The notes beneath the pieces are model-generated. The model saw nothing but the letters and a program-made list of their open reading frames with translations, was not told the origin of the DNA and did not search any database. Both the position numbers and the translations under genes were made by a program. From an uncultured Kordia sp. (GTDB taxonomy: Bacteria; Bacteroidota; Bacteroidia; Flavobacteriales; Flavobacteriaceae): a DNA stretch of 64,000 nt. Below are positions 40,125 to 53,991 of the stretch, one piece after another (position 1 is the first letter of the stretch; every line of letters starts with the position of its first letter). The stretch is taken from contig NZ_CANLEA010000021.1 in assembly GCF_947489565.1 (NCBI RefSeq), forward strand, positions 1-64,000, in the 5' to 3' direction.

Positions 40125-40397
40125 ATGAAGAAAAAGAATTTGAAAAACTTGCTATTAAACAAAACAGTAGTATCAAACCTTGTAAAAGGAGGCGATGGGC
40201 GCGACATTACTAGACAAAGTCCATGTGCTGTTAAATCTGATGGTGGTGCTTGTGATTCTCTTGATTGCGGTCCCGTAGGTGATGTAACAGTAATTGCTAC
40301 TTGTGCTGCCGGATGTACTAGTCCAACCGATCAACTTTCATACTGCGCTGGTGGAGGTGTACCGCACAATTGTTTGTCAATACAAGCATGTGCATAA
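40125..40397 (+). CDS. RiPP (class I lanthipeptide-like) precursor peptide
   Basis: 90 residues. The leader M-K-K-K-N-L-K-N-L-L-L-N-K-T-V-V-S-N-L-V-K-G-G matches the Bacteroidota lanthipeptide/natural-product-precursor leaders (a basic start, L-N-K, then G-G). The core holds 8 Cys and many Ser/Thr (S-P-C-A-V, G-A-C-D-S-L-D-C-G, A-T-C-A-A-G-C-T-S, N-C-L-S-I-Q-A-C-A), suited to thioether or disulfide formation. No LanB/C, radical SAM, protease or ABC exporter is adjacent, so maturation would be in trans, or the precursor is an orphan. Terminator 24 bases downstream; monocistronic. Confidence 0.8.
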   Translation: MKKKNLKNLLLNKTVVSNLVKGGDGRDITRQSPCAVKSDGGACDSLDCGPVGDVTVIATCAAGCTSPTDQLSYCAGGGVPHNCLSIQACA

Positions 40398-51551: not shown

Positions 51552-52523
51552 TTACGCTTCTACAACATCTTCTACAGATGCTAAATAACGTTCTGCATCC
51601 AATGCTGCCATACAACCTGTACCTGCAGCAGTAATTGCTTGACGGTATTCTTTATCTTGAACATCTCCAGCAGCAAATACACCTGGAATGTTTGTTTTAG
51701 TTGACTTTGCTCCCGTGATTAAATATCCAGTATCATCCATGTCTAAAATTCCTTTAAACATATCTGTATTTGGTTTATGTCCAATCGCAATAAAAACTCC
51801 TGTTACAGGAATTTCGTGTTTTTCTTTCGTTTGATTGTTTACCACACGAACACCTTCTACCACCATATTACCTAATACTTCATCTAATTCTGTATTGTAT
51901 AATACTTCTAAGTTTTCAGTAGCATTTACGCGGTGTTGCATTGCTTTACTAGCACGCATTTCATCTCTACGAACCAACATGGTTACTTTTTTACAAAGTT
52001 TTGCTAAGTATGTAGCTTCTTCTGCAGCAGTATCTCCACCACCAACAACAATTACATCTTGTCCTTTATAGAAAAATCCGTCACAAGTAGCACACGCAGA
52101 AACGCCACCACCTTTTAAACGTTCTTCACTTTCCAAGCCTAAATACTTGGCAGAAGCTCCAGTTGAGATGATTACCGTTTTGGCTAAAAATGGTTTCTCC
52201 TCTGCTCCATCACTTATGTATACTGTATGAACTCCTCCTACTTCCGTAGAAAAATCAACCTTTGTAGCAATTCCAAAACGCACATCAGTACCAAAGCGAG
52301 TTGCTTGGTTTTTTAAATCTTCCATCATGGCAGTTCCATCTGTACCATTTGGATATCCTGGAAAGTTATCTACTTCTGTTGTCGTGGTTAACTGTCCTCC
52401 AGGCTCCATTCCTGTGTACATTACTGGTTTCATGTCTGCTCTTGCTGCATAAATTGCGGCTGTATAACCTGCAGGTCCACTTCCTATGATTAAGCAATCT
52501 AATGCTGTATTTGTGTCTGACAT
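51552..52523 (-). CDS. trxB: Thioredoxin-disulfide reductase
   Basis: 323 residues; flavoenzyme that reduces thioredoxin with NADPH. FAD-binding C-L-I-I-G-S-G-P-A-G-Y near 10, redox centre C-A-T-C at 144-147 followed by D-G-F, NADP-binding V-V-G-G-G-D-T-A-A-E-E near 155, and the C-terminal F-A-A-G-D-V. Length is normal. A -7 box TACTTTTG lies at 52556-52563. Single gene, and closed by the 51461 terminator. Confidence 0.96.
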   Translation of the reverse strand: MSDTNTALDCLIIGSGPAGYTAAIYAARADMKPVMYTGMEPGGQLTTTTEVDNFPGYPNGTDGTAMMEDLKNQATRFGTDVRFGIATKVDFSTEVGGVHTVYISDGAEEKPFLAKTVIISTGASAKYLGLESEERLKGGGVSACATCDGFFYKGQDVIVVGGGDTAAEEATYLAKLCKKVTMLVRRDEMRASKAMQHRVNATENLEVLYNTELDEVLGNMVVEGVRVVNNQTKEKHEIPVTGVFIAIGHKPNTDMFKGILDMDDTGYLITGAKSTKTNIPGVFAAGDVQDKEYRQAITAAGTGCMAALDAERYLASVEDVVEA

Positions 52524-52555
52524 ATTCTTTTTTCTAAATATTAAACGCTTTTTAA

Positions 52556-52563
52556 CAAAAGTA
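52556..52563 (-). promoter_or_regulatory. -7 box of trxB
   Basis: Minus strand TACTTTTG, matching TAnnTTTG, about 33 bases before the ATG. No clear TTG at -33. Confidence 0.5.
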
Positions 52564-52640
52564 GTTTTTTCTGTGAATTCCTTACATAAAATTTATCAAC
52601 AATATTCGTTAAGTGTTTGATATCTTTTTTCAAGCTCATA

Positions 52641-52676
52641 AAAAAAGCAACAATGCCTTGTAAACATTATTGCTTT
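52641..52676 (-). terminator. Terminator of frameshifted lipoprotein gene
   Basis: Minus strand AAAGCAATAATG / CATTGTTGCTTT (one mismatch) then TTTT. About 80 bases beyond the stop at 52759. Confidence 0.7.
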
Positions 52677-52758
52677 GTAGTTTCTAATATGTATTTCTTC
52701 TTTATAAAACCTTTAATTGCTTATACATACAAACAATCGTAAGACTCTTTTAAAGAGG

Positions 52759-53212
52759 TTATCTTTCAAAGTTTAGTACATATTGGTAAATACCATCTGT
52801 AAGCGGGATTTCTGTCTGATCTATGGTTAATGTATTATCTGGATTAAGCGTCATGATTCCTATTTCAGCTTGACCAAATTGATCATTTTCTACGACTAAA
52901 TATGCATTCCCATTAAATTCAAAAATTAAGTATGAATATATCCCAGAATACATTCTTCCTGAAGGTTTTGGACTAAAATCTGTAGTTTCTATGGCATTGT
53001 TTTCAACAGTTAGTGTACCATTGTCAAAAGTATAGGTTACTAAAACCTCATTATATATAGGTTTCATCTCCTACTATATCAGATCTTTTAAGGTTCCAAG
53101 ATCCGCTTAATGTACTGTCATCTATTACTAAAGGAGTAACATCATCATCATTGTTACAACTCGCAGTAATAATCAACAATAATACTGGTAATATTATGTT
53201 TCTAATTTTCAT
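52759..53212 (-). pseudogene. Frameshifted lipocalin-like lipoprotein
   Basis: The upstream part (53212 to 53051) encodes 53 residues: a signal with lipobox T-A-S-C-N-N-D-D-D, then T-L-S-G-S-W-N-L-K-R-S-D-I, ending at TAA. The downstream part (53067 to 52759) continues in another frame as Y-N-E-V-L-V-T-Y-T-F-D-N-G-T-L and on to L-N-F-E-R (102 residues by the track). Together they make a normal lipocalin-like lipoprotein of about 150 residues, as found in many flavobacteria. One indel near 53050-53075 explains the break. Either a real decayed gene or a sequencing error. Confidence 0.75.
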
Positions 53213-53342
53213 TTTGGTATGGTTTTAATGTTTATAAAAGTATTAAATGAGCAATATATAAAAAAGCAATAGCCTGTAAAAAACACAGTCATCGTCGGAA
53301 GAAATAATCTTCTAAACATGAATGACTTAGGTTCGCCTTAAT

Positions 53343-53467
53343 TTATCTAGCTGGACAATATAGTTTATAGCTAGTATAATACAATCCTCCTAAAAGCTGA
53401 CCTTTATGTTCTAAACTTGAAATTGACCTCTTATTCAAGCTTAACGATTTAAGATTTTTTTCTTCAT
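53343..53467 (-). pseudogene. RiPP precursor disrupted by a one-base frameshift
   Basis: ATG at 53467 is followed by AAG and seven A. As written the frame ends after 8 codons (M-K-K-K-I-L-N-R). With one more A the frame stays open for 41 residues: M-K-K-K-N-L-K-S-L-S-L-N-K, then an R-S-I-S-S-L segment, L-L-G-G, and a core L-Y-Y-T-S-Y-K-L-Y-C-P-A-R. The leader matches the precursor at 40125 (M-K-K-K-N-L-K-N). The core has one Cys and two Ser/Thr. Missing from the track. Real decay, phase variation or a homopolymer sequencing error cannot be told apart here. Confidence 0.7.
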
Positions 53468-53658
53468 AATAATTCTAATTTTAATATTAAACATAAATAT
53501 CTAAAAAGAAGTATTAAGTCACAATACAAACTACAAAAGCGCAGGTGAAAATTTCAAAAGTGAAGTACTAAATTTCAAATTTAAGAATCAAACCATTCAG
53601 AACATATGAGTCAATGGAAAATTAAAAGTTTTGAAAAGAAGTTTTGAGTGTTGGCGTA

Positions 53659-53693
53659 AAAAAAGCAATAACCTATAAAATACGTTATTGCTC
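53659..53693 (-). terminator. Terminator of three-gene operon
   Basis: Minus strand AGCAATAAC / GTTATTGCT, then TTTTTTT. 29 bases after the stop of the 89-residue gene. Confidence 0.88.
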
Positions 53694-53721
53694 TATTTTG
53701 TGTATTTAATTTTTGTGCTGT

Positions 53722-53991
53722 TTACACAATTTTATTTGCCAAACTCACTAAGAAATTTACGCCATTGTCTATATTAGAAATTGCATCTGCTTTTGAAGAG
53801 TTTGAAGCAGCTGCATCATTAATTTCTTTTAATACTTTAATTGCATTTCCATTGGTAATATTGCTTTCTTTAATGAATTGATCAACTTCTGAAATACTCA
53901 TTTGCGTCAAACTTGCAATGGTAGTTTGAAACTGAGCATCTGTTTGTGCTGCAGCCTGATTTGCTAGGCTATTCCAATCTATATCACTCAT
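53722..53991 (-). CDS. Small helical protein, third gene of unknown operon
   Basis: 89 residues, no signal or membrane segment. Rich in Ala, Ser, Gln and Asn with repeated helical phrases (S-L-A-N-Q-A-A-A-Q-T-D-A-Q-F-Q-T-T, S-K-A-D-A-I-S-N-I-D-N). Ends V-S-L-A-N-K-I-V. I do not recognise it. It is 12 bases after the lipoprotein gene in a minus-strand unit closed by a terminator. The start ATG is clear. Confidence 0.78.
   Translation of the reverse strand: MSDIDWNSLANQAAAQTDAQFQTTIASLTQMSISEVDQFIKESNITNGNAIKVLKEINDAAASNSSKADAISNIDNGVNFLVSLANKIV

What the first reader, a model, noticed from the sequence alone, without database searches (positions are those of the whole stretch)
53343..53467. 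Hidden RiPP precursor broken by one missing A in a homopolymer
Seen directly: an A7 run after ATGAAG kills the frame after 8 codons. Restoring one A gives 41 residues with the same M-K-K-K-N-L-K..L-N-K leader as the intact precursor at 40125, an L-G-G site, and a core ending T-S-Y-K-L-Y-C-P-A-R. It lies in a gap where the ORF track shows nothing. A slippage-prone A tract could make this a phase-variable switch or a decayed gene.
Basis: seen in the sequence. Interest (0 to 1): 0.7.

Follow-up and report, generated by a model that had tools for sequence, protein, structure and literature searches.

The report
Broken member of huge peptide family
A small gene for a lanthipeptide precursor (the raw form of a modified, possibly antibiotic-like peptide) in the marine bacterium Kordia has been put out of frame by one missing base in a run of A's; it is probably one of several casualties of the same slip in a family of at least 150 such genes in this genome, not a designed on/off switch.

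Summary
At 53467-53343 (-) the gene starts ATGAAG-A7-TC and stops after 8 codons. The -1 frame reads through as a 41-residue precursor with the Bacteroidetes class I lanthipeptide leader (LxLxKx5L, ending GG). The leader is real: 31.8 bits against 11.6 for the best shuffle. The genome is a Kordia species with about 150 to 200 scattered leader-bearing genes but one LanB dehydratase gene. Single-base lesions in the same 5' A tract recur: five copies here and four in other Kordia genomes. A tandem pair in this genome shows the event directly: A7 broken copy, A8 intact copy, 0.5 kb apart. Evidence against a selected phase switch: A9 tracts are strongly avoided (3 of 59 MKKK leaders, 33 expected; 0 of 77 internal KKK, 43 expected); the neighbouring lipoprotein gene is also broken; the spacer between n89 and trxB gains and loses genes across Kordia. 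Best reading: a slippage-inactivated, probably decaying orphan precursor. Reversion in some cells is not excluded, and reads were not available. The more interesting context is one LanB gene facing a very large, hypervariable precursor set.

The parts
53343..53467 (-). Frame-broken class I lanthipeptide-type precursor gene; as it stands it codes only MKKKILNR
53455..53461 (-). A7 tract carrying the lesion (codons 3-5); family codon pattern needs one more base here
53385..53457 (-). Leader remainder in the -1 frame, NLKSLSLNKRSISSLEHKGQLLGG (coordinates to within a codon), with the LxLxKx5L motif and a GG end
   Evidence: motif described in PMC7268733
53346..53384 (-). Putative 13-residue core LYYTSYKLYCPAR (one Cys, one Thr, one Ser); the restored 41 aa is shorter than any intact copy in the census (43-105 aa)
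53468..53497 (-). Upstream region that still resembles the family's 5' region (score 5.07; intact median 8.42; 99th percentile of random window sites 2.96)
52759..53212 (-). Lipoprotein gene also broken: ORFs 53051-53212 and 52759-53067 match consecutive parts of one intact gene in K. algicida (L051)
53722..53991 (-). 89-aa conserved neighbour (n89), one border of the variable spacer
51552..52523 (-). trxB-like gene (named from sequence), the other border of the variable spacer
40125..40397 (+). Intact family member in the window (90 aa)

Best explanation
This is an orphan (unclustered) class I lanthipeptide-type precursor gene of Kordia that lost its reading frame by a one-base deletion in its 5' A tract, most likely A8 to A7 replication slippage. 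It now makes only an 8-residue peptide and is a young pseudogene, in a spacer where precursor and lipoprotein genes come and go. Intact copies presumably work like the other Bacteroidetes LxLxKx5L leaders: the leader is recognised by the genome's single LanB with a LanC, and cut at GG by an exporter protease. Shown: the lesion, the leader family, the recurrence, the conserved synteny, the broken neighbour, and the single LanB gene with an adjacent LanC. Inferred: that LanB acts on these peptides, that the missing base was an A, and that the loss is not switched back.
For: Leader far above shuffles. Tract frameshifts recur in other copies: L150, L151, L153 (-1) and L158 (+1) in four other genomes, and four more copies in this genome. 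Tandem pair C12:96961 (A7, broken) and C12:97463 (A8, intact) differ in the tract by one A; their other indels in the coding part are 12 and 3 nt, and dN/dS in the restored frame is 0.32. The neighbouring lipoprotein is also split, while intact in K. algicida. The spacer between n89 and trxB holds a different intact leader gene in G006 and G007, a lipoprotein in G002 and G004, and no recognisable gene in the other six. A9 avoidance speaks against a selected contingency tract. LanB is present once in each of 11 genomes; in this genome LanC and a third ORF lie beside it.
Against: The frame after the tract has no further stop, and the upstream region still scores like intact copies, so decay is not far advanced and reversal would be easy. 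At least six other broken copies keep open cores, which switching would also explain. No orthologous intact copy of this gene was found; cores are species-specific.
Confidence: 0.72

Rival explanations
1. Phase-variable switch: the A tract slips back and forth and turns the precursor on and off in a subpopulation.
For: The same tract is hit in 5 copies here and 4 in other genomes, and most of those keep open cores. A7/A8 tracts are common in these leaders: 85 of 144.
Against: Longer tracts are avoided: 3 of 59 MKKK leaders use AAA-AAA-AAA against 33 expected, and codon 4 is usually AAG, AGA or another interruption. The adjacent lipoprotein is broken too. A7 is short for a contingency tract (general knowledge).
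Confidence: 0.12
2. Homopolymer sequencing or assembly error; the real gene is intact.
For: The lesion is a single-base indel in a homopolymer in a 100-contig draft. This genome has more strict-pattern tract lesions than the other Kordia (4 of 44 against 4 of 280, p = 0.014).
Against: 82 orthologue-matched genes with 62 A7/T7-or-longer runs showed no true frame split. Tract lesions also occur in other Kordia assemblies, including one-contig K. algicida (L158). The lipoprotein lesion lies at a TA repeat, not a homopolymer. The difference 5 of 93 against 0 of 62 is only p = 0.07.
Confidence: 0.1
3. Programmed -1 ribosomal frameshift or transcriptional slippage at the A tract makes the full precursor from the present sequence.
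For: Two divergent copies (this one and C12:106073) share the identical start ATGAAGAAAAAAATCTTAAATC and open downstream frames.
Against: The 0-frame codons (AAG AAA AAA ATC) do not form a good tandem-slip heptamer (G AAA AAA). About 97% of leaders need no shift (316 intact strict-pattern matches), and no in-frame alternative start precedes the leader.
Confidence: 0.05
4. Chance resemblance in non-coding sequence.
For: The core has no orthologue, the frame is only 43 codons, and the genome is AT-rich.
Against: 31.8 bits against 11.6 for the best shuffle; zero matches of the reversed patterns in 11 genomes; upstream family signal.
Confidence: 0.01

Closest known systems
Class I lanthipeptide precursors of Bacteroidetes with an LxLxKx5L leader ending GG (PMC7268733)
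   Same: The leader contains LSLNKRSISSL, an exact LxLxKx5L, and ends LLGG; the core has Cys plus Ser/Thr.
   Different: Frame-broken, very short core, and no biosynthesis genes nearby.
NCBIfam NF038153 lant_leader_L1a
   Same: Aligns over positions 1-23 of the 32-position leader model.
   Different: 17.7 bits, below the cut-off of 22; the intact copy at 40125 also falls below it (14.4 bits).
Prochlorosins of marine cyanobacteria (many scattered precursors, one enzyme; from general knowledge, distant precursors noted in PMC7268733)
   Same: Many scattered precursors with a shared leader and hypervariable cores, and one modification enzyme gene.
   Different: Class II (LanM) there, class I (LanB plus LanC) here; unrelated leader; use of the single LanB is only inferred.
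Homopolymer phase-variable genes such as those of Campylobacter (PMC6321876 found by search, only its abstract seen)
   Same: One-base tract changes alter the reading frame near the 5' end.
   Different: The tract is short and longer tracts are avoided; no population data.

Membership tests
Class I lanthipeptide precursor (LanA), Bacteroidetes type | Leader with the LxLxKx5L motif | tested here: met
   Strict match in the -1 frame; 88 of 144 intact copies match strictly, 138 loosely
Class I lanthipeptide precursor (LanA), Bacteroidetes type | GG cleavage site between leader and core | tested here: met
   LLGG at the leader end; 141 of 144 intact copies have GG or GA at positions 16-40
Class I lanthipeptide precursor (LanA), Bacteroidetes type | Core with Cys and Ser/Thr | tested here: met
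   LYYTSYKLYCPAR has one Cys, one Thr, one Ser
Class I lanthipeptide precursor (LanA), Bacteroidetes type | Intact open reading frame from a start codon | tested here: not met
   Stop after 8 codons; leader and core only in the -1 frame
Class I lanthipeptide precursor (LanA), Bacteroidetes type | LanB/LanC in the same gene cluster | tested here: not met
   The single LanB is on another contig (C2:166694), beside a LanC
Class I lanthipeptide precursor (LanA), Bacteroidetes type | Lanthionine-bearing product | not testable with these tools
   Needs mass spectrometry
NCBIfam NF038153 | Score at or above the curated cut-off (22 bits) | tested here: not met
   17.7 bits for the read-through peptide; 14.4 for the intact one at 40125
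Phase-variable (contingency) locus | Tract lengthened or maintained beyond codon-usage expectation | tested here: not met
   A9-coding Lys triplets strongly avoided, as elsewhere in the genome
Phase-variable (contingency) locus | Both tract states within one population or species | not testable with these tools
   One assembly per species, no reads

The most novel reading that the evidence does not exclude
The 5' A tracts of the Kordia leaders act together as a low-frequency, reversible lottery. At any time a few of the 150 or more precursors are off, each cell shows a different subset of peptides, and one LanB/LanC set modifies whatever is on. This copy is one of those presently off.
Probability: 0.08. 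Interest if true: 0.75.

Novelty: new member of a known kind. Interest (0 to 1): 0.36.

Why it matters
Automatic annotation would miss such copies, and they show that lanthipeptide precursor repertoires in Kordia are being lost as well as kept. The broader setting, one LanB gene against at least 150 scattered precursors with largely species-specific cores in this genome, and one LanB in every Kordia examined, is a testable class I counterpart of the prochlorosin arrangement and would make repertoire turnover directly measurable.

Tried and rejected
Naming search with the 41-aa peptide: too short, replaced by a 200-aa neighbour. Orthologues of two other broken copies (C12, C2): none outside this genome at E 1e-8. 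One apparent split gene in the sequencing-error check proved to be an over-extended start in the relative. Two of the nine -1 pattern hits were not tract frameshifts: L149 is in frame, L154 is a nonsense change. A downstream hairpin folds better than most shuffles (z -2.35), but the terminator scan did not list it, so no terminator is claimed. Bacteroidota -7 motif TAnnTTTG was found in only 13 of 144 upstream regions and was not used. No paper on phase variation of lanthipeptide precursors was found in the held library.

Full report
Observation. On the minus strand from 53467 the sequence is ATG AAG AAA AAA ATC TTA AAT CGT TAA. The A7 is real in this assembly and the frame ends after eight codons. 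The -1 frame is open from NYYEEKNLKSL to the TAA at 53343-53345, with no in-frame start before the leader. Read as one frame it is MKKKNLKSLSLNKRSISSLEHKGQLLGGLYYTSYKLYCPAR.

More than chance. A profile built from intact leaders of the same genome scores it at 31.8 bits; the best hit in block-shuffled sequence of the same 677 kb was 11.6. The -1 pattern search gave 9 hits in 11 genomes, with none for the reversed control. NF038153 gives E = 0.003 but stays below its cut-off. The leader contains the LxLxKx5L motif described for Bacteroidetes class I lanthipeptide leaders that often end in GG (PMC7268733; test).

What genome. Contig lengths identify relatives G008, G005 and G002 as Kordia sp. 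(MAG ALOHA_ZT_18), K. periserrulae and K. algicida OT-1, so the window is from a Kordia species. A search with the peptide gave 149 matches at E up to 10 in this genome. Of the 148 besides the finding, 144 have an ATG where expected and 4 do not; the profile found 197 leader-like hits at 12 bits or more in the 677 kb held. In one genome for each of 121 genera sampled from the family, only six had any NF038153 hit at E 0.01, with 49 in this genome and 1 to 3 in the others.

The lesion recurs. True one-base lesions in the tract: in this genome C21:53467 (the finding), C12:106073, C12:96961, C2:378481 and C6:74050; elsewhere L150, L151 and L153 (-1) and L158 (+1). Strict intact leaders number 316 (summed here). 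The pair C12:96961 and C12:97463 lies about 0.5 kb apart and differs in the tract by one A, A7 in the broken copy and A8 in the intact one; the remaining coding indels are 12 and 3 nt, and dN/dS in the restored frame is 0.32. This shows the step for that copy. For the finding itself an A8 ancestor is likely but not proven, since loss of a G in codon 4 (AAG or AGA) would leave the same A7. Among intact copies codon 4 is AAG in 44, AGA in 43 and AAA in 19.

Switch or decay. Lys is AAA in 82.5% of codons in genes of 200 aa or more. At that rate 33 of 59 MKKK leaders should read AAA-AAA-AAA; 3 do. Internal KKK triplets: 0 of 77 against 43 expected. Leaders therefore avoid long A tracts as the rest of the genome does, which is not what a selected contingency tract predicts. 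The lipoprotein gene beside the finding is split into two frames, while K. algicida has it whole and G004 has an intact gene of the same kind. The order 200-aa gene, n89, spacer, trxB is conserved in all 11 genomes; the spacer holds a different intact leader gene in G006 and G007, a lipoprotein in G002 and G004, and no recognisable gene in six others. This is a turnover site, and both genes here are broken. On the other side, the upstream region still scores like intact copies and the downstream frame is open, so the loss is recent or reversible.

Sequencing error. In 82 orthologue-matched genes with 62 A7/T7-or-longer runs no true frame split was found. This speaks against frequent homopolymer errors but is weak (p = 0.07). 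This genome does have more strict-pattern tract lesions than the other Kordia (p = 0.014), so error or a raised slip rate is not fully excluded.

Machinery. Each of 11 Kordia genomes has exactly one Lant_dehydr_N (LanB) gene. In this genome it follows a LanC gene and precedes a 302-aa ORF; the role of that ORF was not tested. LanC-like matches number six here. That the one LanB serves the scattered precursors is inference.

Verdict. A real, hidden, broken precursor of a known kind; decay by slippage is the best explanation, a switch is possible but less likely. The single-LanB, many-precursor setting deserves more attention than the broken gene. Kordia was already noted as rich in RiPPs (PMC11118758); in the passages read, that paper did not state the one-LanB arrangement.

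Noticed in passing
L222 (G000:C2:165432-168664) and all 11 Kordia genomes: Exactly one LanB gene per Kordia genome; in this genome it lies beside a LanC and a 302-aa ORF, against roughly 150 to 200 scattered leader genes.
   Followed up: partly
G000:C12:96961 and C12:97463 (L109): Tandem precursor pair, one broken by one A fewer in the leader tract, the other intact.
   Followed up: yes
window 52759-53212: Lipoprotein gene split into two frames near a TA repeat; whole in K. algicida (L051).
   Followed up: partly
window 51552-53991 and L049-L058: Spacer between n89 and trxB is a gene-turnover site in the genus: leader gene, lipoprotein, both, or neither.
   Followed up: yes
G000:C4:115168, C31:12917, C4:279443 and C8:214744: Leader-like copies without an ATG at the expected place (ATA, ATT or other), probably further decayed copies.
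   Followed up: partly
G000:C12:106073 (L156) and window 53467: Two diverged copies share the identical start ATGAAGAAAAAAATCTTAAATC and the same lesion; whether inherited or repeated is unclear.
   Followed up: partly
L156, L158 and the C12 tandem pair, downstream of the stops: GC-rich hairpins such as GCGAACTTCGGTTCGC and GCGATCTTCGGATCGC followed by T-rich sequence, likely terminators.
   Followed up: no
genes of 200 aa or more in 677 kb of this genome: AAA-AAA-AAA for internal Lys triplets is absent (0 of 77, 43 expected).
   Followed up: yes
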